This document shows positions 4,841 to 28,371 of a stretch of DNA of 32,555 nt, piece by piece (the stretch's first letter is position 1; each line of letters opens with the position of its first letter). Made by a program: the position numbers and the translations under genes. The notes under the pieces were generated by a model. The model saw only the letters and a list, made by a program, of their open reading frames with translations, did no database searches and was not told the DNA's origin. This DNA comes from a virus. Location: the IMG/VR virus record IMGVR_UViG_3300017991_000286, positions 1 to 32,555 of that record. The stretch is one strand, 5' to 3'.

Positions 4841-4954
4841 TTGCGGGGTATCCTGCCATTTATCACGCCAGAATGGCAAGATAGAAATGGATATTGCAGT
4901 CGTTGCGGGGTATCCGGCCATTTATCGGGCCAGAGTGGCCTGATAGAAATGGAT
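4841..4954 (-). repeat. two 52-bp direct repeats, each holding an inverted repeat; the second ends in the tRNA 3' end
   Basis: Copies are 4841-4892 and 4903-4954. They differ at six positions (14, 25, 26, 33, 37 and 38 of the unit). Each holds an inverted repeat: tgccatt/aatggca in the first, ggccatt/agtggcc in the second. The change of t to g in one arm is matched by a to c in the other, so the pairing is preserved. The last bases of the second copy contain the CCA end of tRNA-Gln, and the first copy repeats the same tail. The array may have arisen by duplication of sequence next to the tRNA 3' end. Confidence 0.7.
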
Positions 4955-5023
4955 GCCCCGAGTCGATTCGAACGACTGTGACGAGATCCAAAGTCTCGTG
5001 GACGGCCACTATCCCACGGGGCA
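4950..5023 (-). tRNA. tRNA-Gln (anticodon UUG), CCA encoded
   Basis: 74 nt with a complete cloverleaf. The acceptor is TGCCCCG/CGGGGCA, the D stem GGAT/GTCC, and the anticodon stem CGAGA/TCTCG with loop CTTTGGA (anticodon TTG). The T stem is AGTCG/CGACT with loop TTCGAAT, and the encoded CCA follows discriminator U73. The weak U1-A72 pair is typical of tRNA-Gln. U73 in place of the usual G73 is unusual. The D loop is short (AGTGGCC). It would be transcribed from the promoter at 5090-5119, together with the downstream hairpin cluster and hexapeptide gene A. Confidence 0.92.
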
Positions 5024-7106: not shown

Positions 7107-7182
7107 TGGAGCCAGGGGAGGGAGTTGAACCCACAACTTGCCGCTTACAGGGCGGCGGCTCTGCCAGTTGAGCTACCCTGGC
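7107..7182 (-). tRNA. tRNA-Thr (anticodon UGU), CCA encoded, with unusual bases
   Basis: 76 nt. Acceptor GCCAGGG/CCCTGGC, D stem GCTC/GAGC, anticodon stem GCCGC/GCGGC with loop CCTGTAA (anticodon TGT), T loop TTCAACT, U73 and an encoded CCA. Two oddities stand out: position 33 is C instead of the near-universal U, and the T stem GTGGG/CCCTC has one T-T mismatch. A run of seven T follows the CCA on the minus strand. It starts six bases after the stop codon of the lipoprotein gene, so it is probably excised from that mRNA. Confidence 0.85.
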
Positions 7183-7188
7183 CGAACC

Positions 7189-7545
7189 TTACGTTGTCGT
7201 CGTGGTGGTGTTGCCGTTGCGCTTCTTGCGCTGTAGAAGAATAGTGAGGAGTATGCCGCCCCCGCCTCCACCGCCTATGAGGCCACCGCCGAGGACCCAC
7301 TTGCCAACCGTACGATCGGCCCACGCGTCACAGCTATCATCGGCAGTATCCCTAACCTTACCTTTACCTTCCGCGGAGTCGAGATAATCACGACAGGCCT
7401 GCTGGAGAACCACCTGCCCGGCAGGATCCTCCATCGTATTGAGTATCAGCTTCCTGTTGTGCCGGTCAACGTCGTCGCGCAGTACCCCACAGCCCGACAG
7501 TAACATGACGGTGCACAATAACATCGAGTATGTTACATATCGCAT
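7189..7545 (-). CDS. lipoprotein with C-terminal membrane segment
   Basis: 118 aa. MRYVTYSMLLCTVMLLSGCG is a lipoprotein signal with lipobox LSGC, so Cys19 would be acylated. The middle is charged and helical (DDVDRHNRKLILNTMEDPAG). Residues about 84-106 form a very glycine-rich hydrophobic segment (GGGLIGGGGGGGILLTILL), then a basic stretch and six threonines at the end. The ATG overlaps the stop of the endonuclease gene as TAATG. A lipoprotein near lysis genes might be an outer spanin, but the second membrane segment is atypical. Confidence 0.65.
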   Translation of the reverse strand: MRYVTYSMLLCTVMLLSGCGVLRDDVDRHNRKLILNTMEDPAGQVVLQQACRDYLDSAEGKGKVRDTADDSCDAWADRTVGKWVLGGGLIGGGGGGGILLTILLQRKKRNGNTTTTTT

Positions 7546-8381
7546 TATGCTGCCTTATCCTCTTCCGTGCGCTGTAGCTTTTCTCTGTACTTTCTCTTTT
7601 TTGTAGCCGATATTTTCGCCTTCGTCTCCGCTGACATAGGCGGACGCCTGCGCTGTGCCGCAGATAGTTTAGCCCGTGTCTCTTCTGAAGGTCGACGACC
7701 CATCCCAGCCGCAGATATCTTCGCACGCGTCTCCGCAGTAACAGGTGGCCGCGCCTTAGCCGCTGCCGACAACTTGGCCCGGGTCTCTGCAGATACACGT
7801 CCACGCCCTGCCAGCTTACGACGAACCCACGCCTCGCGCATCTTAGCCTTGGTCGCCTCGGATCTGTGAGAGCCTGTATTCAGGGCCACCAGTTTAGCCT
7901 TGGTCTCCGGCGACATCTTCCGCTTTCCCGCATTTGCAGCCACTACATTTCTTATATGCTCTGGCGTATGTTTTTTACCGCGCAATGCACGCGATATAGC
8001 CTGCCGGCGTTCTAAGGTATATTTCTTACCGGTATGAGCCGCAGCAATCTTACGGCGCACTTCCTCCGGAGGGTTGTAGCCTGTAGATCCTTCTCCACCA
8101 TCGGTAGCATTTGTCAGTTTGGCTCCAGATTTACGAAACTGCGCAATTGTCGCTATCTCCGCCTTGCTACCGCTATCGCTAACAGTGGTGAGTAACTTAA
8201 TGCCGGGTTTGTAGCCCGCTGCAAGGCACGCCCGTATCCAGTTACACCGGTGGTTACGTTTACCGCACCGCGCCTCGGATATATGGCAGGAGAGCCGGCG
8301 CGGCAGTTTGCTGCCAGTCTTCCCAATATATCGCACACTACCGTCGTAGTCAGTTAGTGCGTATATATGCGTGTGTCTCAT
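7545..8381 (-). CDS. GIY-YIG homing endonuclease with NUMOD3 repeats
   Basis: 278 aa. The N-terminal domain (about 1-95) carries HIYALTDYDGSVRYIGKT, a GIY-YIG signature with His in place of Gly in the first motif. A conserved glutamate follows (KAEIATIAQF). From residue 100 on there are six or more NUMOD3-type DNA-binding repeats (SxETRAKLSAA and variants). The protein would nick or cut a specific DNA site and spread its own gene. Its ATG overlaps the stop of the tubulin-like gene as ATGA, so it sits exactly at the gene end and interrupts nothing. A free-standing homing gene is the best reading. Confidence 0.85.
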   Translation of the reverse strand: MRHTHIYALTDYDGSVRYIGKTGSKLPRRLSCHISEARCGKRNHRCNWIRACLAAGYKPGIKLLTTVSDSGSKAEIATIAQFRKSGAKLTNATDGGEGSTGYNPPEEVRRKIAAAHTGKKYTLERRQAISRALRGKKHTPEHIRNVVAANAGKRKMSPETKAKLVALNTGSHRSEATKAKMREAWVRRKLAGRGRVSAETRAKLSAAAKARPPVTAETRAKISAAGMGRRPSEETRAKLSAAQRRRPPMSAETKAKISATKKRKYREKLQRTEEDKAA

Positions 8382-9586
8382 ACGTCTCCAAACTTCTTCA
8401 ACTCCTTAATCCGATCGACCGGCGCGTCAAGGCCGCCAATCATGGTATACACCACGAGATTGTCAGCCCTGCCACGGTATACACCTCGGTGTACCATACT
8501 GCCCGACTGCATGATCCGGGTCAACTGCTCGAAGCCGTGGTCTAGGTTAACCTGAGGCACCTTCTCGAGAATGCTCTTGCCGCCTATGATTATAGCGCCC
8601 GCAACTTTACCAGTTCCAAGGTCTAGACCCCCAGCTAAGAGATTTTTCTGAATATTGTCGCGAACCGCGTAGCTGATATCCGTCGGGTCATCCCACTTGG
8701 CGATCGGAGTAGCTCCGAAGACGATCAGGCCGGAGTTGAGCAGGGTACTGTAATCCGTCGCATCAAACGACGTATACCGGCTCGACTTCACAGCAATCGT
8801 GTTGAACAGATGGAACAACGAGGCCACGCTCTTATTCGCGGTCTTCCAGAAGGGGTCGACCGCTAAGTTGGGATATATGGATTCAATGCGTTCATTATCC
8901 AGCACGATGAGCGGAGACACCACTCCCTTGTCCACCAGCTCCATCGCGTGGCTGAGCACCCTGTAGGCGTTGGCGTTGACGCGCGCACCCTCAGCATTCT
9001 TCGGGAGGGCGATGATGACGCCCACGCCCTTATCCTCGATCTTGAGGGCCGCCAGTAGCTCCCTAGCGGTCTCAACGATGGGGAAGAGGGTCCCCGCACC
9101 TGTTCCGCCGCCTGCGCCCGCACACACGAATACGCGGTCGAATGCGGGACCGAAGCTCCGGCGCATGAGATCCAGCACATCTTCCTTCGCGCCCTTGTAC
9201 AGCGCTGCGGCCTTCTCCGGATCCTTACCGGCTCCGCCGCCACCGATGACGAGCTTGTTGTCCTCGGGGATCTTGATCTCCACCATGTCCTGCTGAGCGG
9301 TGTTGATCGCACAGACCCTCGAGTAGCCCATGGCGTTGAAGGCTGCGGCAATGCGGCTGCCGCCCTGTCCGGCGCCGATGAATGCGAAGTTGAATGCGCC
9401 CTCGAACTTGTCCTTGACGCTCTTGTCCTCCGCTGCCTGCGGTAACGGGATATCCGGCACCTCAATGTCGAATCCGACATCTGCTTCCTCTTCAATAGGT
9501 GCCGAATCGTCAACCGGTTTTACGGAATCGTTAACCTCAGGGGTCTCATCGGGAACGCCGCCTTCAAGTCGTGCTGCTTCTTGCAT
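8378..9586 (-). CDS. tubulin/FtsZ superfamily GTPase
   Basis: 402 aa from ATG at 9586 (AAGGAA eight bases upstream). A longer frame to 9712 is possible, but it lacks a ribosome binding site and runs through two perfect hairpins. Residues 1-62 are an acidic linker-like extension. The GTPase domain follows: FNFAFIGAGQGGSRIAAAFN (T1), AINTAQQDM (T2/T3), the signature GAGGGTGAGT at 157-166 (T4), and NERIE. SFDATDYSTLL at 273-283 corresponds to the FtsZ T7 loop N-x-D-x-x-D; both aspartates are kept and the Asn is Ser. Filament formation with GTP hydrolysis is expected for the family. Phage members (TubZ, PhuZ) partition plasmid-like prophages or centre a phage nucleus. Which applies here cannot be told. 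Confidence 0.88.
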   Translation of the reverse strand: MQEAARLEGGVPDETPEVNDSVKPVDDSAPIEEEADVGFDIEVPDIPLPQAAEDKSVKDKFEGAFNFAFIGAGQGGSRIAAAFNAMGYSRVCAINTAQQDMVEIKIPEDNKLVIGGGGAGKDPEKAAALYKGAKEDVLDLMRRSFGPAFDRVFVCAGAGGGTGAGTLFPIVETARELLAALKIEDKGVGVIIALPKNAEGARVNANAYRVLSHAMELVDKGVVSPLIVLDNERIESIYPNLAVDPFWKTANKSVASLFHLFNTIAVKSSRYTSFDATDYSTLLNSGLIVFGATPIAKWDDPTDISYAVRDNIQKNLLAGGLDLGTGKVAGAIIIGGKSILEKVPQVNLDHGFEQLTRIMQSGSMVHRGVYRGRADNLVVYTMIGGLDAPVDRIKELKKFGDV

Positions 9587-9753
9587 TTTTCGTTTCCTTT
9601 TTTTAGCTATACGCGGTGTGACCGCGCGTTTGCGCTGTCTGACAGCGCGTTGTCGCCTAATAGTGTTGCACGCGTTACGGCGTGCCCTCGCGATTGCCGT
9701 GCTCCTCCTCATTTCACGTAACCAATTATATCGTTTCCGTTATGGTTTGTTAC
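9587..9753 (-). promoter_or_regulatory. probable promoter and structured leader of the tubulin-like gene
   Basis: On the minus strand a perfect -10 TATAAT lies at 9725-9730; no convincing -35 was found. Downstream come two perfect hairpins: gcgctgt/acagcgc (9632-9648) and cgcggt/accgcg (9612-9626). These support a leader of about 130 nt with translation starting at 9586. The alternative is an N-terminal arginine/lysine-rich extension of 42 residues encoded by the same stretch. Confidence 0.45.
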
Positions 9754-11682: not shown

Positions 11683-14600
11683 TCAGTCCTTTATGCTGAC
11701 CACGTCCTCAACATTCACGTCCCCGCGCTTGAACGCGGCCACAACGTCCTTCAACTTCTCGTACCGTGGGAGTGTCCGCCGTCCGGAGCGCTTCGTGCTC
11801 GCCGTATACAGGCCCTGCAGGAACTCCTGTCTCGGTGCCCATAATGTAGCAAAATCAGCCGGACTCCGCAAGTTCTGACTTGGGAGCATCTTCCTCTTCG
11901 CCTCCTCGATGGCCTTATCCGACACCACCACATGGAAGTTCATAGCATCCCCGTCGAAATCGGCGTTGAATCCGGGCACAATCGACGGCGACAGCTGGAG
12001 GGTACGCCCCTTCGTGAGTATGGGTTTGAATGCCATGATCGAGAACCGGTGGAGCGCCGGCGCCCTCGTGGCAAGCACGGGACGGGCCTCCATCTCCTTC
12101 GTAAGCGCGTCCAGGGCCCTGCTGTCACGGTTTGCCACCATGCGGACGGCTGCAGCACGTGCCGATGGATTGGTTCCCATCGTACGCACGAGTCGGCGTA
12201 CCACAAATGGTGCATACAGCTTCCACGCCTGATCCTCGGGCAGCCCCACCTGATCCATGTTGAGATCCGGGTTCGGTGTGATAGTAGACCGAGCCGAGAG
12301 ATCGACTGACGTCCCGAGCAGCCTCCGTTGGAAGGCACCTGCCTTCGGCGAGGATCCGAAGACCTCGCCGAGTAGGCCGCGTATGCGTTGTTGTCTACGC
12401 TCGGGCTTGATCGGGTCCCCCAGCCCGGTAATAGCCTTCAACGCCTTGTATGTGTTCAACCTGGAATCGTATACAGGATCACCCGACAGCTGATCCTTGA
12501 TTTCCTTCAGGTTCTTATCGGCGTTCATCAGATCCATGTAGAGCATGTTGACACCCGACACCATATTGAACTTGTTGGTGGCCGTGATCGGGCGAAATAT
12601 GGGAGGTAGGACAGGAACCTTCGTGATCACCATGTCCGCAGGGTGCGTCTTGTTCTTCTTCATGGCACGGAGATAACCAAGCTTCTTGACGGCGGCATCG
12701 CGTGCCACCCCGCTCGTAGCGCTCTTCACAGCATCCCGATTGTGCTTGATGGCCGCATCGAGATTGATGGCCTCCAGAGCCCTCTTGATACCACCCCCGC
12801 CGTGACCGAAGCCGGGGATATCCTCCTTGCCGGCGATAACGTTCTCGTACTGCACCTTCGTGAGGCCGAGGAGACGCCGGATGGGATCCTCCATAGACGG
12901 TTGAGGCATAGGCTCCGACAAGGTAATGTGGCTCCATCGATTCCCGCCGTGCCCACCGGTGATACCACGATCGAAGAGGCCGCCCTTCACCGGATCCAAC
13001 GACTTCTCCCCAAACGTACCACGACCGTACTCCGTAAGCCAGCGGACGGTGCCGGTGTTCTCGATCTCTCCGCCGGACATCTCATCCACGTCCTTGTCCG
13101 TCATAGCCGTCAGGTGCAGGTGATCGCCCCGTTTCTTTATGTTGATGCCCGCCGCCTGCATCATGGACATGAAGCGCTTGTACGCGTTGGGAATGTTCGG
13201 CGAGGGTGGTGGGAAGCCCAGAGCCATCGCGCGCCAGTAGTCGTCCGATCGCTGGCCGCGGATGGTCTTGATATCCTTGATGTTCTCGATAGCGCCGTGG
13301 CTGATCAACGCCTGCATTTCACCGAGCCCGACGCGTTTAGGGTTGTCATCGTCTCCCGGCTGGCCCTTCGAGGGCATACCCTCCATCGTATAGGCGCCCA
13401 GCGCGCGGCCGGACTCCTTGGACTCCGCCGTATGGTGCAGCTTCATGATATATCGATTGCCGGTCAGCACGCGCGGTATCTGCCGACCGGTCTCGGGATT
13501 CACAAGGGTTTCAGTGTCCTTAACGCCGTGCTTTTGCATCTCCTTGATCGTCCACTCAACCATGTTCTCATCCGAGAAGCCAGGCACTTCGTATGGTTTA
13601 CCCCTCTTCGCCGCAATCTTGCCCAGCACGGCCTCGAGCATCTGCGCCGGATTCTTACGGGAGATCACGCCCAGCGGATTCAACAGTACTTCCAGCGGAT
13701 TGCCGCCCTCGTCCATAGGCATCTGGTCATCGGGGACCACAGCGCCTATCACACCTTTGTCACCGTACCGGCCGGACAGCTTATCACCCACTTCCGCCGG
13801 CGCATAGGCTTGGACCGCGACCTTCACGCCATTCTTGTCCGACCATACGTCGGTAACCCGCCCGGGAAAGTGATGCTTCCACACGACAGACGCATCACGA
13901 AAAGGACTTTTCGCGCCACGGTAGAGCATTCCCGCACCCTTCGATGTCCGACGCTGCGTAGCGAGTATGAGAGGATCATCCGGCTCTACGATAGCGCCCG
14001 GCATGACTATTCCGTCATCGCCTATTTTGTCCAGCTGGGCCCTATTATACTGCGCCGGGAACATGGAGACGAATGCGGAGCGCTTCGCCGACGTCATATT
14101 GTCGAAATCCATCTTCTCCGTGTACATGTGTTCGGACGCCAGCTTCTTCGCCGCCGAGTCGCTGACGACAATGGCATCCTCGAAGTTGAGGCCCTTGTAT
14201 GGCATATACGCGACGCGTAGATTCTTACCCAGCGCCACCGTCCCCTGATCATCTGTGAAGTTGCTCTTCGCCAGCAGCTGACCCTTGCTCACCATATCAC
14301 CCACGTTGACCAGCGGGGTGTTGTGAACATAGGTCTTACGGTTCAGGGGAAAGTTGTCGTACATCTCGTACTCACGAAGCTGGCCGTCCGTCTGCTTCAC
14401 CACCACCTGATGGGGCTTCACACGTATCACCTGACCGCCAGCCTCATTCCGTACGGCGCCGACGTACTTGCCCAGACGCTTGTAGAAGCTCTGCGCTTGG
14501 GGATCCACCGACTGTACGAGCGGCGACTCCGCATCACGCAATGGGAGGGCTTGACTCTGCATCTTCGCCCCCATGAGGAGGCGGCCGCCGTCAATGGAGC

Positions 14601-16101
14601 TGACCAGCGGTATCATGTTCGATCCGTAGGTGAACAGGCCCTGATGGCTCGGCGCCTGATACTTGACCTCCTTGATCGGCGCGTACTTCAGTTCCCCAGC
14701 TACCATGGCCTTCACGTGTGTGCGACCCTCCCGCTTTGCCTTCTGCAGCTCACCGGGGAAGGCGATCGCCGTATCCACGAGATCGGTGGGGGGCAGGAAC
14801 ACCGGCTTCCCCGCACGGTTCAGCACCTTCGTGTACATTGCCTTATTAGGACCCTTGAAGGTGTTGAAGGCTACACGGGCGTCGACACCCACACGTCCGG
14901 ACTCTGGGGTCCGGATGGGATCGATGAACATGAAGTGGGATGGCTGTACATCACGCGCTTCCTCCGGTATCGTATCCATACCGGACATACCTCCCTCGCC
15001 CATACGCGTGATCCGGAGGTTCTGATCCAGCGCGTCCAGCGCATTGATCTCCTCCAGCGGCTGTGCCACCCCCGCCTTGAAGAAAACGGCGTCCAGCTGC
15101 GGAGTCAATAAAGAGGGTTGCATTCCGGAGAGGTTGCCGCGGAGTGTGGCCTTCCACAGGGCTCGCGCAGCCAGACGACCGGAGTCCTTCATGATACGTT
15201 CACGGAAGAAGTCGTTGGCCGACCACGTTTCTTGGAAGGCGAGAGAATCACGGTCATCCGTGTCCTCCGTGCCCTTCCCAACGTTGATCAGCTTCTGCAT
15301 CGTACGATTCAGGACCTCGGGAGTAACCCTGTCGTACGGTTGGCCCAGCGTCCTCTTCGTGACCTCCGGATCCAGCTTGAAATTGTCCAGCAACGCTACA
15401 AAGTTCTTCGGTGCCTTCTCATTCGTCTCGTTGCGCGCCCTCGCGTTGGCGAGGCGAGCCCACAGCTTCTCCAGCGTGGAGTCCTTACCCTTGAGCGTCG
15501 CATTCGCTTGGTACAGGTCGCTGCCCCACAGCTTCTGCAGCTGGGCGTCCGACACCCCCATCGCCTTCATGATCGGGTACATACGCAGGCGGGCCTGCCC
15601 CACCTGCATGCGGAAGATGCCCGTACGGGGCTCCATGAACACGCGGAAGCCCGGGCCGCCCTTCACGATGTTGAAGTGGGCCTCGAGATCCCCATTCTCC
15701 TTCCGGCGGGTGAAGACGCCGCCGCGCAGCCGCATCTGGTTCGATACGGTGTACTCGTTGCCGCGTAGTATGTATGTGCCACGGGAGGTCAGGAACGGCA
15801 CGTGCGCAATCGTCGACTTGTAGGTGTCGACGGGTTTGCCCGTGGCCTTGTCGGTGAGCCGCCACGTACCATTCAGGTTACGGTACAGAGAGTTGCGCTG
15901 TAAAATGGCCTTCTTCTGATCGGACAGACTGTAGCGCTCCGGCCCCTTGTAATCCACGTCCGTCAGTTCCAACCGGTACCGGTCGTTCTCGATCGGATAC
16001 TTGGTCTTCACGGCATCGACCACCCCGTCGTAAATGCGGTTCCGCATAGACGGGTAGTCGAGGAAGTCAAGTAGTTCGGGAGGTTGTGGAGCAGGTGGCA
16101 T
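11683..16101 (-). CDS. multisubunit-type RNA polymerase: beta fused to N-terminal part of beta-prime
   Basis: 1,472 aa. Beta landmarks in order: FLTSRGTYILRGNEYTVSNQ (103-122), RDVQPSHFMFIDPIRTPES (383-401), NFEDAIVVS (639-647), GDKLSGRYGDKGV (772-784), LLNPLGVISRKNP (806-818) and the switch-like KESGRALGAYT (895-905). Beta-prime landmarks: GGLFDRGI near 1040 without the usual zinc cysteines, VLPPIFRPI, RSTITPNPDLNMDQVGLP, TRAPALHRFSIMAFKPIL, and the Mg-binding NADFDGD at 1379-1385. The protein ends 87 residues later, so the bridge helix, trigger loop, jaw and C-terminal clamp of beta-prime are absent and are seen nowhere in the window. Both double-psi barrels are present. It lies among suspected virion proteins, so it may be a packaged polymerase, as in phiKZ-like phages. 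ATG at 16101 follows GGAGG. Confidence 0.93.
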   Translation of the reverse strand: MPPAPQPPELLDFLDYPSMRNRIYDGVVDAVKTKYPIENDRYRLELTDVDYKGPERYSLSDQKKAILQRNSLYRNLNGTWRLTDKATGKPVDTYKSTIAHVPFLTSRGTYILRGNEYTVSNQMRLRGGVFTRRKENGDLEAHFNIVKGGPGFRVFMEPRTGIFRMQVGQARLRMYPIMKAMGVSDAQLQKLWGSDLYQANATLKGKDSTLEKLWARLANARARNETNEKAPKNFVALLDNFKLDPEVTKRTLGQPYDRVTPEVLNRTMQKLINVGKGTEDTDDRDSLAFQETWSANDFFRERIMKDSGRLAARALWKATLRGNLSGMQPSLLTPQLDAVFFKAGVAQPLEEINALDALDQNLRITRMGEGGMSGMDTIPEEARDVQPSHFMFIDPIRTPESGRVGVDARVAFNTFKGPNKAMYTKVLNRAGKPVFLPPTDLVDTAIAFPGELQKAKREGRTHVKAMVAGELKYAPIKEVKYQAPSHQGLFTYGSNMIPLVSSIDGGRLLMGAKMQSQALPLRDAESPLVQSVDPQAQSFYKRLGKYVGAVRNEAGGQVIRVKPHQVVVKQTDGQLREYEMYDNFPLNRKTYVHNTPLVNVGDMVSKGQLLAKSNFTDDQGTVALGKNLRVAYMPYKGLNFEDAIVVSDSAAKKLASEHMYTEKMDFDNMTSAKRSAFVSMFPAQYNRAQLDKIGDDGIVMPGAIVEPDDPLILATQRRTSKGAGMLYRGAKSPFRDASVVWKHHFPGRVTDVWSDKNGVKVAVQAYAPAEVGDKLSGRYGDKGVIGAVVPDDQMPMDEGGNPLEVLLNPLGVISRKNPAQMLEAVLGKIAAKRGKPYEVPGFSDENMVEWTIKEMQKHGVKDTETLVNPETGRQIPRVLTGNRYIMKLHHTAESKESGRALGAYTMEGMPSKGQPGDDDNPKRVGLGEMQALISHGAIENIKDIKTIRGQRSDDYWRAMALGFPPPSPNIPNAYKRFMSMMQAAGINIKKRGDHLHLTAMTDKDVDEMSGGEIENTGTVRWLTEYGRGTFGEKSLDPVKGGLFDRGITGGHGGNRWSHITLSEPMPQPSMEDPIRRLLGLTKVQYENVIAGKEDIPGFGHGGGGIKRALEAINLDAAIKHNRDAVKSATSGVARDAAVKKLGYLRAMKKNKTHPADMVITKVPVLPPIFRPITATNKFNMVSGVNMLYMDLMNADKNLKEIKDQLSGDPVYDSRLNTYKALKAITGLGDPIKPERRQQRIRGLLGEVFGSSPKAGAFQRRLLGTSVDLSARSTITPNPDLNMDQVGLPEDQAWKLYAPFVVRRLVRTMGTNPSARAAAVRMVANRDSRALDALTKEMEARPVLATRAPALHRFSIMAFKPILTKGRTLQLSPSIVPGFNADFDGDAMNFHVVVSDKAIEEAKRKMLPSQNLRSPADFATLWAPRQEFLQGLYTASTKRSGRRTLPRYEKLKDVVAAFKRGDVNVEDVVSIKD

Positions 16102-20536: not shown

Positions 20537-22405
20537 TTATAGCCCTCGCTTTAGCATGCTCATCTGTTGTTGTTTCCACAAATCCTCGGTCTTGTCCGGC
20601 TGCCCCCTCGTAAAGTACTTGTCGAGCCACCGTGATATCGTCGGCGTCCCCGTAGCCTGCGCCAGCTCCGGCCGTGGTTCTGCCCTGCCGAGTACCACAT
20701 CCGGATCCACACGCTTAGCACCCCAAAAGCCTTGTTGCGGCTGCATCACGTTGCGTGCCTGCCGGTCCAGCAACTGCACGAATTCATCCCCCGTCATCTG
20801 CCCTGTACGGAACATCTCGCGTGCGCGCCCCATCGTAGTCCCCACACCCACGTCCGCCGCCGTCCGCGCTGCCTGCTCGAGACCACGCTCCTGCGCACGA
20901 CGCATGTTCGAGGCTCCGATGGCTCCCAGCATCTTCCCCGGCTCCATAACGGCCTTCAACGGCCTTCGCCATGCGGGGATGTCCCTGTACTCCTCAAGAT
21001 ACCGTCCGGTACGCGCCGCGTAAGGATCAGCGCCCATTCCGAGGGCTTGGCCAGCCTCACCCGCCGTCTGCGCCGCCGTACCCACGAGATAGGCCGTGAG
21101 CGCCTGCGAAGGCAACTTCGCCAGCGCGGGCTTCAACGTCGCGGCCGCCGGCGTACCCCCAACCGCACGCTGTAGTAACGCCCTCCCCAACGCTTCGCCG
21201 CCCATGTATCCGGGGAATGACATAGCCGTCGGCATCAGCATCTCACCGGGCACATCCACACCGCCGGGTATCGTCACATCCCCGGGGGTCGCCCCCACAC
21301 CTTTCTGTAACGCCTCGGTACCCTTGTAGGCGGCACCAGCACCCAGACCGCCGGTTGCGAGCCCAGCGAGACTGCCGGTCCCAGCCGCAAGCAATCCCTT
21401 GCCGCCTCGTGCACCCTTCATGGCCATCAGCGGGTAGATGATGTCCTCTTTACCTATATCGGGACGCAACTCCTCCTTCGCGATATCCCACGCGGTTGGC
21501 AGCGGTACATCGGGGGTCACCACCCCCCACGCCTGCTGTACGCGATTGAGCACATCCTCCGCCTGCTCGTCGCTGATGAACGGGTTGGTCTCGAACTCCT
21601 CCATCACCTTCCTCAACGTGCCGGCATCTCCGCTCTGCATGAACCGGCGGATCCCTCGATCGAACGTGCCCATGAAACGCTGTGCTTCCCCCTCAACAGC
21701 CTCCGGTCCGTACGTGTCGATCAGTTGTTCGCGAATGGACGGCATCTCCGGCATCTTCACCGGCGGAGTCTCCTCAACCTGCGGGGGCGCCAACGTATCT
21801 TGGGAGATTGGACCCTCCGCAGCCACCGCCGTTGGCTCCTGCGCTTTACGCTTGTTGCGGAGCAGTGCGTATAGGCCCGCACCACCGCCCACGGCGAGCA
21901 ATGCGGCAATAAGCTTGCGATTGCGTTGGAACCACGACCTGCGTTCTTCTTCTTCCTTCTCATCACCTTGAGCGGCAGCCTTCGCCATCTTCGGCTTGAC
22001 GCCGACGGTGATATGGAACGGGTGGCTGCCGTGCAGCAGGGGAGTCAGACCGTAACTCTTCCGCAGCTTCTTGAGTTCCGGACTCTGCACGGTAGCGAAG
22101 TAGACTCGGCTCATCTCCGGCCAGCCGGAGGGGTTAACCTGCCGCATGGTCCCCAACGTGAAATGGAAGTCACGGCCCCGCTCCTTTATTTTCTCGCGGC
22201 CGCCCAACTTTTCAATCTCCTTGGTGGTGAATACGGAGATATGAGCTTTACCGTCCGGCAGCCTGACACCCGGATCGCTGATGGACGCGAACAGCCCGCG
22301 GGCTATGGCCTGCGGAACCTGGAGCTTGCCCCACGGGTCATCGCCGCCGGACACCACGAGGCGCCCAACGAGCTGTACACGTTTCAAGCTGTTAACCGGA
22401 GCCAT
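20537..22405 (-). CDS. 2H-phosphoesterase-like domain fused to virion-like membrane protein
   Basis: 622 aa from ATG at 22405 (weak GAGG site). The N-terminal domain (about 1-140) carries three H-x-[ST]-x motifs: AHISVF (H55), FHFTLG (H81) and FHITVG (H131). A pair of such motifs defines 2H phosphoesterases, which open cyclic phosphates on RNA or cyclic nucleotides. A charged stretch and a membrane segment follow (about 163-183, KLIAALLAVGGGAGLYALL). Then comes a long helical and glycine-zipper region (SLAGLATGGLGAGAAYKG) typical of phage virion proteins. It may deliver a nuclease or phosphodiesterase with the virion. The catalytic pairing of the histidines is my inference from spacing. Confidence 0.7.
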   Translation of the reverse strand: MAPVNSLKRVQLVGRLVVSGGDDPWGKLQVPQAIARGLFASISDPGVRLPDGKAHISVFTTKEIEKLGGREKIKERGRDFHFTLGTMRQVNPSGWPEMSRVYFATVQSPELKKLRKSYGLTPLLHGSHPFHITVGVKPKMAKAAAQGDEKEEEERRSWFQRNRKLIAALLAVGGGAGLYALLRNKRKAQEPTAVAAEGPISQDTLAPPQVEETPPVKMPEMPSIREQLIDTYGPEAVEGEAQRFMGTFDRGIRRFMQSGDAGTLRKVMEEFETNPFISDEQAEDVLNRVQQAWGVVTPDVPLPTAWDIAKEELRPDIGKEDIIYPLMAMKGARGGKGLLAAGTGSLAGLATGGLGAGAAYKGTEALQKGVGATPGDVTIPGGVDVPGEMLMPTAMSFPGYMGGEALGRALLQRAVGGTPAAATLKPALAKLPSQALTAYLVGTAAQTAGEAGQALGMGADPYAARTGRYLEEYRDIPAWRRPLKAVMEPGKMLGAIGASNMRRAQERGLEQAARTAADVGVGTTMGRAREMFRTGQMTGDEFVQLLDRQARNVMQPQQGFWGAKRVDPDVVLGRAEPRPELAQATGTPTISRWLDKYFTRGQPDKTEDLWKQQQMSMLKRGL

Positions 22406-22418
22406 TATACACGAACCT

Positions 22419-22763
22419 CTACTTCGCAGCCGTGCGCGCGGCGCCCACACTGTTGGCCACCACGTCCGCCAAATGGTCGATAGAGCCGGAGAGATTATTG
22501 TACCCCTCAGCGTTCTTCGCCAAGGCGTCGGATGTCTCCTTCACCATATCCTTCGTCGACTCAGCGGCTTCCTTCATGTCCTCACGGTAGTGCTGGAGGA
22601 TCTTCACACACATCCAACCGAGTATCACGATCCCGAACGCCAGTATGAACTGGGCCGAACCTTTACCCAACTTCTCGATGTCCGTTGTCGCCTGTATCTG
22701 CCCTACGACGGGCAGCGCCACAACGGAAGCGAAGAAACCCATGAATGTCAGTTGCGTTTCCAT
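22419..22763 (-). CDS. two-segment membrane protein with coiled-coil tail, 114 aa
   Basis: METQLTFMGFFASVVALPVV is a first hydrophobic segment. GSAQFILAFGIVILGWMCVK is a second, and a long coil (REDMKEAAESTKDMVKETSD, then ALAKNAEGYNNL) follows. ATG at 22763 comes after GGGAG. The gene sits directly after the portal gene in transcription order. A holin-like role is possible from its topology, but a structural membrane protein is equally likely. Confidence 0.65.
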   Translation of the reverse strand: METQLTFMGFFASVVALPVVGQIQATTDIEKLGKGSAQFILAFGIVILGWMCVKILQHYREDMKEAAESTKDMVKETSDALAKNAEGYNNLSGSIDHLADVVANSVGAARTAAK

Positions 22764-26093: not shown

Positions 26094-27701
26094 TTACAGT
26101 TCGACCTGCTTGATCATGTCGACCCAGTGCTGCCCATTCAACTCCCCGTTCACGAAGAACCGGATTATGTCGAACACGTAGTCGCTGAATCCGCCGATGT
26201 ACATGACGTCCTCACGGGGAGGCACCTGCGCATCGTCGTACACGCTGGTGTTGATGCAAACAAGCTTCGCCTTCGGGTTGCGACGCTTGAACCGCGTCCA
26301 TTCCCTCAACGTCTCGGTGCACGACTCCTTGAAGTGGTGTGCGTACAACCGCATACCCCCCTCGGCCGGCACATCCACCCACGATTCGTTATCGGAGACG
26401 TAGATGAGGACATCACCCTTCGCACCCCGCTCGTTAAGCAACCGCAGAGGCGCGGAGCACGCCGTGCTCCCTCCCCCGATGCTGGCCAGCTTGTCGGCAT
26501 TGGTCATCACCGTATCGCGCGGCTCTAACCTAATGGGATGAACCCTTCCCTCGAAGGGAATGATCTCGGCGTCCGGGTTCGCCCGGAGGATGACCGACGC
26601 CACCAGCCCGGCGACGTCCACGCAACGCACCTTCGAGCTGTTACCCGTCCGATAGCCGGTTACGGAGCTACGCATACTCCCCGACACGTCGGGGAACACG
26701 TAGACCTTCCCCGGCAACGCCTCCACGTTCTCCGTCGCGATCTCCAGCGCGTCGTGCAGAGCATCAATAATCGGACGCGGCATATCCTGACTGACATGCC
26801 TGTAGGCAGCCAGCAGCTGATATGGATAAACCCTCGCCTTGTCGATCTGCTCCCGATCGGTCAGTTTCTCCGCAATGCGCTCGACCATCGCCTCGTCGTT
26901 GAGCACACCGTGGCGCGCGAACGTATTGAGGTTCATGCGCGTAAAGTGCCAGCCGCCCGCCAGCGCCACCATCGACCACTGCTCGGTTGTCAACGGCAAC
27001 TGCGTAAGCATCTGGAAAGGCACCCTCGGCGGTACACCCTTCCCGTCCGACTGCTTGTAGGCCTCGAATTCCCGTACCAGCGACGGAAGCTTCTCGGACT
27101 CCTCAGGACTCAAATCCTTGGAGAGTCCGGCGCGGTTCAGGAAGTACCTGTAGAGCGCGCTCTTCTCCGCCGTTGCCGGCTTCGGGTGGGCGATGCGCAG
27201 GATGTCCGCCATTGACGGACTCTGCCCAACGCTGTTACGGAACAGCCAGTTACCCGACTGCACGTCCAGCCATCGCCGTATTCTCGCCTTCGGCCCGCTA
27301 CCAACGGACTTCCGTCCGGACGCTCCGGAGCGGATGATCTGCACAAAGTTGCGAAGCTGTTTGCCATTGTCCACAACCTTGTCAAAGATCTTGTTGAACA
27401 GCTCCGGATCCCTGCGCGATAGCACCGCCAGTAGAAATGCCGGTACGTCCTTGCGGTACCCAGCCTTCCGAGCAAACACTGCAGTCTGCGCCACGAACTC
27501 GGGGTCGCACTTCTCCGCCAGCTTCCGGACTCGGTCCAACTGGGAGGCCGCCCCCTCATAAAATGATTCGCTGAATGTGCCCACCGCCGCATACTGCGCA
27601 AGAGCCTCCTCTGCGCTGTAACAATATGCGAGTCCGCCCGCGCGGTTGACACAGTCTGCTGCCTTCGGCTGTGCGTTCTTGAATGTTGCTTTGTTAGCCA
27701 T
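26094..27701 (-). CDS. rsr: Ro60/Rsr ortholog (TROVE and vWA domains)
   Basis: 535 aa, the usual length for Ro60 (about 530-540). Residues about 10-330 form the TROVE helical-repeat ring: GGLAYCYSAEEALAQYAAVG, then FARKAGYRKDVPAFLLAVLS and RNFVQIIRSGASGRKSVGSG. Residues 333-530 form a von Willebrand A domain with a complete MIDAS: DVSGS at 338-342, the GGGST threonine at 412-413, and VSDNES at 436-440. Ro60 rings bind misfolded RNA ends in the hole and Y RNAs on the outer surface. In Deinococcus a Y RNA tethers Rsr to polynucleotide phosphorylase. Four Y-like RNA modules lie directly upstream on the same strand. ATG at 27701 follows GGAGGGG. Ro60 and Y RNAs have been reported in some phages. 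Confidence 0.93.
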   Translation of the reverse strand: MANKATFKNAQPKAADCVNRAGGLAYCYSAEEALAQYAAVGTFSESFYEGAASQLDRVRKLAEKCDPEFVAQTAVFARKAGYRKDVPAFLLAVLSRRDPELFNKIFDKVVDNGKQLRNFVQIIRSGASGRKSVGSGPKARIRRWLDVQSGNWLFRNSVGQSPSMADILRIAHPKPATAEKSALYRYFLNRAGLSKDLSPEESEKLPSLVREFEAYKQSDGKGVPPRVPFQMLTQLPLTTEQWSMVALAGGWHFTRMNLNTFARHGVLNDEAMVERIAEKLTDREQIDKARVYPYQLLAAYRHVSQDMPRPIIDALHDALEIATENVEALPGKVYVFPDVSGSMRSSVTGYRTGNSSKVRCVDVAGLVASVILRANPDAEIIPFEGRVHPIRLEPRDTVMTNADKLASIGGGSTACSAPLRLLNERGAKGDVLIYVSDNESWVDVPAEGGMRLYAHHFKESCTETLREWTRFKRRNPKAKLVCINTSVYDDAQVPPREDVMYIGGFSDYVFDIIRFFVNGELNGQHWVDMIKQVEL

Positions 27702-27765
27702 GACATTACCCCTCCTTGATTGGGTTGTTGTGAAGTATGTGAGTTATACGTGAAATGGGTGAGGA

Positions 27766-27866
27766 CTGCAACCGACGACGCCAGTAGTTAACAAACCAAC
27801 GTGTTATGATGGTAGCACATCAGTGTATACCGGGTTGTCATTCTGCCCGGCGCCGATAGGTTGCAG
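27766..27866 (-). ncRNA. Y-RNA-like module A (101 nt)
   Basis: On the minus strand, CUGCAACC and GGUUGCAG form an 8-bp closing stem. After a small internal loop (UAU/UC) comes a 9-bp stem, CGGCGCCGG with CUGGCGUCG, with two G-U pairs that would be A-C mismatches on the plus strand. This supports minus-strand transcription. The top holds CCGGG/CCCGG and GAUG/CAUC hairpins. The 3' strand carries UCGUCG, shared with modules B-D. It lies 65 bp upstream of the Ro60 start codon. A helix formed by both ends, with an internal loop and a variable top, is the layout of Y RNAs. Confidence 0.6.
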
Positions 27867-27876
27867 ACAAATTGGA

Positions 27877-27972
27877 GCCCCGACGAAAGTGAGGTAGACG
27901 TGTCAACCTCCCATAAGCGGGAAGTAGCATTCATTTTCATGGTAAATGTAGTCCACGCTCGGCATTCGGGGC
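27877..27972 (-). ncRNA. Y-RNA-like module B (96 nt)
   Basis: The closing stem is GCCCCGA/UCGGGGC. The internal loop is AUGCC versus ACUUUCG, the latter partly shared with C. The second stem is GAG-C-GUGGAC with GUCUAC-CUC. The top holds two hairpins, CAUUU/AAAUG and ACUUCCC/GGGAGGU. Compared with C, the closing stem differs by paired changes (GCCCC/GGGGC versus GUUCC/GGAAC), and the second stem by G-C versus A-U, so the structure is kept by compensatory change. UCCA follows the 3' end, as in a tRNA-like tail. Motifs shared with C: CCGAAUGCC, GGACUACAU, ACACGUCUA and UUUCGUCGG. Confidence 0.68.
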
Positions 27973-27979
27973 ATGTGGA

Positions 27980-28042
27980 GGTTCCGACGAAATATGTATA
28001 GACGTGTATCCAAACGATGTAGTCCATACGGCATTCGGAACC
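27980..28042 (-). ncRNA. Y-RNA-like module C (63 nt, minimal form)
   Basis: Closing stem GGUUCCGA/UCGGAACC (8 bp), internal loop AUGCC versus AUAUUUCG, second stem GUAUGGAC/GUCUAUAC (8 bp with one G-U pair), and an 18-nt terminal loop. It is separated from B by seven bases, and UCCA again follows the 3' end. It lacks the upper hairpins of B, so it may be the bare protein-binding element. The G-U pair is an A-C mismatch on the other strand, so the minus strand is favoured. Confidence 0.68.
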
Positions 28043-28061
28043 ATATAAAAAGCGCTTAACA

Positions 28062-28109
28062 GTACGACGAAAAACGAAGAGACAGTTTGTGGTCTAAGGG
28101 CTTACGTCC
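28062..28109 (-). ncRNA. Y-RNA-like module D (degenerate)
   Basis: Shares the order of motifs with B and C: GUAAGCC, AGACCACA, GUCU and UUUUUCGUCG. The second stem is reduced to AGAC/GUCU and the closing stem to about 4 bp (GACG/CGUC). It lies about 20 bases upstream of C in transcription order. It is either a decaying copy or a variant with a different partner. Confidence 0.45.
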
Positions 28110-28260
28110 TATTTGGTTTTTCGGTTTATGGGATACCGGATGCGTCTGACCAGGACGCGGCTCACCCCCCAAACCTATCGACAGCTATCCGCAGCTCGCT
28201 TTGAGAGCGCCTTAACGCGTGTCGCCAACGCTTCGGACATTACGCGGTTCGCTATTTGCA

Positions 28261-28290
28261 TTAATGTAGTCCCTTACAGCATTCGTACCA
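28261..28290 (-). repeat. isolated 5' half-copy of the Y-like module (E)
   Basis: On the minus strand this reads GGUACGAAUGC, then GGACUACAU, closely matching the 5' half of C (28014-28042). I could not find a matching 3' half that would close the stem, so this is a half-copy or a remnant. The remaining stretch 28110-28260 holds no ORF or other signal that I recognise. Confidence 0.5.
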
Positions 28291-28342
28291 TCAAGCTGCA
28301 GTCGCCGGCTCGTCCGGACACCGGTGACCACGTTTGAAACCA

Positions 28343-28371
28343 TGTATAGCACAGACAGTAACCGAGAGCAA
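28343..28371 (-). promoter_or_regulatory. sigma70-like promoter candidate for the Y-like array and Ro60
   Basis: On the minus strand, -35 TTGCTC (28366-28371), 17 bp, -10 TATACA (28343-28348). It lies just downstream of the stop of the 61-aa gene and upstream of modules E to A. It differs from the GTTAAA/CATAAT promoters. Transcription from here would give a leader of about 630 nt containing all modules before the Ro60 start codon. Confidence 0.45.

What the first reader, a model, noticed from the sequence alone, without database searches (positions are those of the whole stretch)
27701..28371. Ro60 with a tandem array of four Y-RNA-like modules in its leader
Seen: four adjacent stem-loop modules (A-D), 7-20 bases apart, upstream of a full-length TROVE-vWA protein. 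B and C share motifs in the same order (CCGAAUGCC, GGACUACAU, ACACGUCUA, UUUCGUCGG). Their closing stems differ by compensatory changes, and their stem wobbles are G-U only on the minus strand. Known: Y RNAs bind Ro60 and are encoded near it in bacteria and some phages, often with a tRNA-like part. Inference: these are Y RNAs. What looks unusual is the close-packed array, the reduced form C, the UCCA directly after the closing stem of B (one base further on in C), and the position on the same strand as a possible shared transcript. The array might be processed into several Y RNAs with different upper domains serving different partners.
Basis: partly seen in the sequence, partly recalled or inferred. 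Interest (0 to 1): 0.88.

Follow-up and report, generated by a model that had tools for sequence, protein, structure and literature searches.

The report
Phage Ro60 gene with three Y RNAs
A phage genome fragment carries a gene for the RNA-binding protein Ro60 (Rsr) and, just ahead of it on the same strand, three closely packed small RNAs of the known bacterial Y RNA family, one of them unusually long; it is a well-supported new example of a known arrangement, and the clustering itself turns out to be common.

Summary
The core claim holds, but the anatomy needs correcting. The leader of the phage rsr gene (26094-27701, minus strand) holds three Y RNAs, not four. Modules B (27877-27972) and C (27980-28042) match a covariance model built without window sequence (45.6 and 51.1 bits; E 1.6e-9 and 6.7e-11). 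Module A is a stable hairpin but matches neither model.

The family's helices covary strongly. All listed matches beside related rsr genes lie on the rsr strand (70 viral; 300 listed of 319 bacterial). Of 22 records with a related phage RNA polymerase, the three with full-length rsr carry 4, 5 and 3 Y RNAs; the other 19 carry none.

Close-packed arrays (gaps 6-20 nt) and short forms like C are common, and UCCA is not conserved. Verdict: genuine Y RNAs, a new member of a known kind. Points of interest left are the 243-nt member and three different upper domains lacking the tRNA-like motif. Expression, processing and partners are untested.

The parts
26094..27701 (-). rsr: Ro60/Rsr homologue, 535 aa, TROVE plus vWA domain with DVSGS metal-site motif
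   Evidence: Pfam TROVE 5.6e-6 and vWA_Ro60 4.6e-14; PHROG 850 1.2e-39; D. radiodurans Rsr structure 2NVO 1.8e-25; alignment. NCBIfam Rsr equivalog matched at 5e-25 but far below its cut-off (87.9 of 900 bits).
27766..27866 (-). module A: about 100-nt hairpin closed by CUGCAACC:GGUUGCAG; not a recognisable Y RNA
   Evidence: fold z -3.1; no match to R1 or R2
27877..27972 (-). module B: Y RNA, 96 nt, upper loop of about 51 nt with a hairpin, no T-arm motif
   Evidence: R1 45.6 bits E 1.6e-9; R2 46.3 bits E 1.4e-10; fold z -3.6
27980..28042 (-). module C: short Y RNA, 63 nt, upper loop of about 18 nt
   Evidence: R1 51.1 bits E 6.7e-11; R2 47.2 bits E 8.1e-11; fold z -3.5
   Evidence: R2 32.2 bits E 8.7e-7 in the window, alignment; 14-bp and 7-bp helices; pair probabilities mostly 0.70-0.95 without constraint

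Best explanation
The leader encodes three phage Y RNAs that bind the phage's own Rsr. Each has the family core: a closing stem ending in CGA:UCG, CGAAUGC on the 5' side, a second helix GGAC:GUCU followed by UACAU, and UUUCGUCG-like sequence on the 3' side. Known for relatives: the basal stem of a bacterial Y RNA holds Rsr, and the upper domain can tether it to the exonuclease PNPase. Inferred here: the leader is transcribed towards rsr and yields separate RNAs of about 243, 63 and 96 nt. C, with almost no upper domain, would act mainly as a gate or stabiliser of the Rsr ring. B and the long RNA would present upper domains, without the tRNA-like motif, to nucleases or other partners, giving Rsr several jobs in RNA decay or repair during infection. 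Identity as Y RNAs is well supported (about 0.95); the split into gate and tethers is a guess (about 0.4).
For: Model R1 (no window sequence) finds B and C; R2 (bacterial sequences only) finds B, C and the long RNA, next match E 1.9. Covariation: 99.1% of cells paired, score 0.546 against 0.150 shuffled; viral set 0.846 against 0.183 (alignment fitted to the model); RNAalifold predicts the same helices. All listed matches beside rsr genes are on the rsr strand. Among relatives sharing the phage RNA polymerase, Y RNAs occur in the 3 records with full-length rsr and in none of 19 others. 27 of 31 viral rsr records have a match. Same motifs in Rfam YrlB/YrlA next to a bacterial rsr. Full-length TROVE-vWA protein. 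Function of Rsr-Y RNA-PNPase from PMC7790460 and PMC8394870.
Against: No expression data; no Rfam match in the leader; whole 243-nt RNA is not more stable than shuffles (z 0.38); no promoter-like site in the leader; binding of these RNAs to this Rsr is untested; no PNPase seen in the fragment among the ORFs scanned.
Confidence: 0.85

Rival explanations
1. The modules stay in the rsr mRNA as a cis-regulatory leader: Rsr binds its own 5' UTR copies and controls its message, with little release of separate RNAs.
For: They fill the 690-nt stretch directly before rsr on its strand; leader-like placement also in L019, L026, L027, L031.
Against: In most viral and bacterial relatives the RNAs lie downstream of rsr or kilobases away, which a 5' UTR switch would not tolerate.
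Confidence: 0.1
2. Chance hairpins or decayed repeats with no function.
For: No Rfam match; no expression data.
Against: Independent models, covariation, strand bias and co-occurrence with rsr.
Confidence: 0.02
3. The long element is not one RNA: the 5' half at 28285 is a relic and D is unrelated, leaving two Y RNAs.
For: Whole-length fold not better than shuffles (z 0.38); 185-nt insert longer than nearly all relatives.
Against: Both family helices pair in the unconstrained minimum-energy fold; 4 of 20,000 shuffles nearly as good; R2 E 8.7e-7; R2 also finds matches of 185, 241 and 247 nt in other viral loci.
Confidence: 0.07

Closest known systems
Bacterial Y RNAs YrlB (RF02565) and YrlA (RF02553) in rsr-yrlBA-rtcBA RNA repair operons
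   Same: CGAAUGC and GGA(C/U)UACAU motifs, closing stem next to rsr, several in tandem, one short (YrlB) and longer ones; operon in PMC7790460
   Different: Window RNAs lie upstream of rsr, are not matched by Rfam, show no tRNA-like T-arm motif, and no rtcB was seen in the fragment
Phage Rsr loci with Y RNAs (mycobacteriophages, Chen et al. 2014 as cited in PMC12282133; putative in Listeria phage CKA15)
   Same: Phage-encoded Rsr with non-coding RNAs nearby; in CKA15 three highly transcribed regions within 2 kb upstream of the Rsr-like gene on the same strand
   Different: Here the RNAs are identified by covariance models; those of CKA15 were a suggestion, and its RNAs were not compared here
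Y RNAs of viral records G010, G013, G008 that share this phage's RNA polymerase
   Same: rsr plus arrays of short Y RNAs, gaps 6-14 nt in G010
   Different: Arrays lie downstream of rsr or far from it, not in the leader

Membership tests
Bacterial/phage Y RNA | Closing stem with CGA:UCG and the GGAC:GUCU second helix, supported by covariation | tested here: met
   B, C and the long RNA by R1/R2; covariation in the family
Bacterial/phage Y RNA | Encoded near rsr on the same strand | tested here: met
   Within 600 nt upstream of rsr, minus strand
Bacterial/phage Y RNA | Binds Rsr through the basal stem | not testable with these tools
   Needs binding assay
Bacterial/phage Y RNA | Expressed as a discrete small RNA | not testable with these tools
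   No transcript data for this record
Bacterial/phage Y RNA (module A) | Core motifs and helices | tested here: not met
   No match with R1 or R2 at E up to 10 in the leader
YrlA (RF02553) in the strict sense | Rfam model match and tRNA-like domain | tested here: not met
   No Rfam match at E up to 5; no T-arm motif in B and C; the long RNA's upper domain was not matched by ARAGORN or Rfam tRNA
Rsr / Ro60 protein | TROVE plus vWA domains with the metal-site motif | tested here: met

The most novel reading that the evidence does not exclude
Phage Rsr loci carry a kit of Y RNAs whose common core binds Rsr and whose divergent upper domains (here about 18, 51 and 185 nt, none with the tRNA-like motif) recruit different partners, including a giant Y RNA form, so that one Rsr serves several RNA-processing machines during infection.
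Probability: 0.3. Interest if true: 0.62.

Novelty: new member of a known kind. Interest (0 to 1): 0.42.

Why it matters
What phages do with Ro60 and Y RNAs is open. This locus, and covariance models that find several hundred relatives in rsr neighbourhoods, most outside what Rfam's two enteric-type families were built for (my inference), make it possible to ask which Y RNAs are made during infection, whether short ones gate Rsr, and what upper domains without a tRNA-like part bind. It also shows that a Y RNA can be split by a long insert so that its two ends look like separate failed modules.

Tried and rejected
Rfam at gathering threshold and at E up to 5: nothing in the leader. Module D as its own RNA: z -0.67 and no model match worth the name. 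Copy E as a decayed short Y RNA: dropped when its stems were found to pair with D. Module A as a Y RNA: no model match. UCCA as a conserved feature: 14 of 190, near background. The window Rsr alone, and a neighbouring 597-aa protein, as queries found no viral relatives; an alignment was needed. DNA similarity of the leader and of the long upper domain in phages: nothing meaningful. A sigma-70-like promoter in the leader: none. Two 'phage' records with similar Rsr (OR845705, OR851267) proved to be bacterial rsr-Yrl operon fragments.

Full report
What is there. The window is a 32,555-base virus record with a fused beta/beta' RNA polymerase, a tubulin-like protein and tRNA genes. The gene at 26094-27701 (-) is a full-length Ro60 homologue: Pfam TROVE and vWA_Ro60, PHROG 850, D. 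radiodurans Rsr 2NVO by sequence at 1.8e-25, and the DVSGS motif. Its best relative in the annotated phage collection is Rsr of Myxococcus phage Mx1, 47.8% identity over the full length. In a quick tree of 80 sequences it pairs with Mx1 (SH-aLRT 82); viral and bacterial Rsr fall on two sides of one branch, itself weakly supported (23).

Checking the modules. The motif CGAATGY-N3-10-GGACTACAT occurs three times in the window, all on the minus strand in this leader, and never in 100 shuffles. Two copies are B and C; the third (28264-28285) was not reported. B, C and A fold better than shuffles (z -3.6, -3.5, -3.1); D does not (-0.67).

Are they Y RNAs? Rfam has no match in the leader. But two phage records turned out to hold bacterial operon fragments in which Rfam's YrlB and YrlA follow rsr and share these motifs; in L003 an RtcB-like frame follows, recognised by eye. 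Scans with a protein alignment gave 35 viral and 80 bacterial rsr loci. The motif appears in many of them, always on the rsr strand. From 25 short examples, none from the window, an alignment gave 99.1% paired cells and a covariation score of 0.546 against 0.150 shuffled and at most 0.085 for slid controls; RNAalifold found the same two helices on its own. Helix 1 carries a selection bias, since examples were kept when their ends paired. Helix 2 was selected only by GGA(C/T) on one side, and still shows compensatory changes (C-G to U-A in 5 of 25 at its inner pair). Model R1 found C at 51.1 bits (E 6.7e-11) and B at 45.6 bits (E 1.6e-9) in the whole window with filters off; the next match had E 1.1.

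The third Y RNA. The 5' half at 28285 and the 3' half inside D belong together: GCUUGAUGGUACGA pairs with UCGUACUGUUAAGC over 14 bp and AAGGGAC with GUCUCUU, giving a 243-nt RNA at 28054-28296. Both helices are in the unconstrained minimum-energy fold, pair probabilities mostly 0.70-0.95. Stems nearly as good arose in 4 of 20,000 dinucleotide shuffles. Model R2, built from 150 bacterial matches only, scores it 32.2 bits, E 8.7e-7 in the window, next to C and B. R1 missed it, I infer because of the insert length. The whole RNA is not unusually stable (z 0.38), so the claim rests on the family motifs and helices. In transcription order the leader is therefore: long Y RNA, 11 nt, C, 7 nt, B, about 10 nt, hairpin A, then rsr.

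How usual is it? R1 gave 188 matches in the bacterial rsr loci and 52 in the viral ones, R2 319 and 70; all listed ones are on the rsr strand. Of 22 records with a related phage RNA polymerase, the three with full-length rsr have 4, 5 and 3 Y RNAs and the other 19 have none (one of these has a weak partial vWA match); chance of that split is 1 in 1540 by hand, with the caveat that many records are fragments. 27 of 31 viral rsr records have at least one match (some of them trained R1). Gaps of 6-20 nt are common; G010, a polymerase relative, has five in a row with gaps of 6, 7, 11 and 14 nt. Viral forms are mostly short: 6 of 40 viral matches have a T-arm motif against 61 of 150 bacterial ones (found with a model of short forms, so biased). 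Matches of 185, 241 and 247 nt occur in other viral loci (the 241-nt one overlaps a shorter R1 match, and a 333-nt one may be spurious).

Mechanism. Shown elsewhere: Rsr is tethered by Y RNA to PNPase in D. radiodurans (PMC7790460), and the basal stem of YrlA holds Rsr while its tRNA-like domain is described as the PNPase-binding part (PMC8394870). Inferred here: three phage RNAs bind phage Rsr through the shared core. C has almost no upper domain and would gate or stabilise Rsr; B and the long RNA could tether it to partners, and without the tRNA-like motif these need not be PNPase. Co-transcription with rsr is likely from position but unshown; no sigma-70-like promoter lies in the leader, which says little for a phage with its own RNA polymerase.

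Known context. Y RNAs with Rsr in bacteria and mycobacteriophages were described by Chen et al. 2014, as cited in PMC12282133; that paper and the 2018 review could not be read here. PMC12282133 reports three highly transcribed regions within 2 kb upstream of an Rsr-like gene in Listeria phage CKA15 and suggests Y RNAs. TROVE proteins in jumbo phages are noted in PMC7824862. So this is a new member of a known kind, with one unusually long member; how often arrays of this size have been described before I could not check.

Noticed in passing
L148, L151, L153-L156, L158, L159 and L149 (IMG/VR records G023, G025-G029, G031, G032, G024): These viral contigs carry the strict Y RNA motif, most with a Y RNA model match, but show no Rsr/TROVE gene in the fragment: possibly phage Y RNAs without their own Rsr, or simply fragments.
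   Followed up: partly
L164 670-795 and 1022-1125 (+) (Myxococcus phage Mx1, OR576727.2, about 45.2-45.6 kb): Two Y RNA matches about 11 kb upstream of Mx1 rsr, on the same strand (one also). I did not check what the record annotates there.
   Followed up: no
L002 and L003 (OR845705, OR851267): Records filed as Escherichia and Salmonella phages are fragments of a bacterial rsr-YrlB-YrlA operon, with an RtcB-like frame in L003.
   Followed up: partly
window 11683-16101 (-): Single 1472-aa protein with both beta and beta' RNA polymerase domains, nearest to Salmonella phage Arash and Vibrio phages at about 32% identity.
   Followed up: partly
window 20537-22450 (-): 637-aa protein with an N-terminal 2H-SAK phosphoesterase domain, a domain type linked to RNA repair in general knowledge.
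   Followed up: no
window 8378-9712 (-): Tubulin/FtsZ-like protein.
   Followed up: no
window 7107-8381 (-): tRNA-Thr next to a GIY-YIG/NUMOD3 homing-endonuclease-like gene; a tRNA-Gln at 4950-5023 was seen by ARAGORN only.
   Followed up: no
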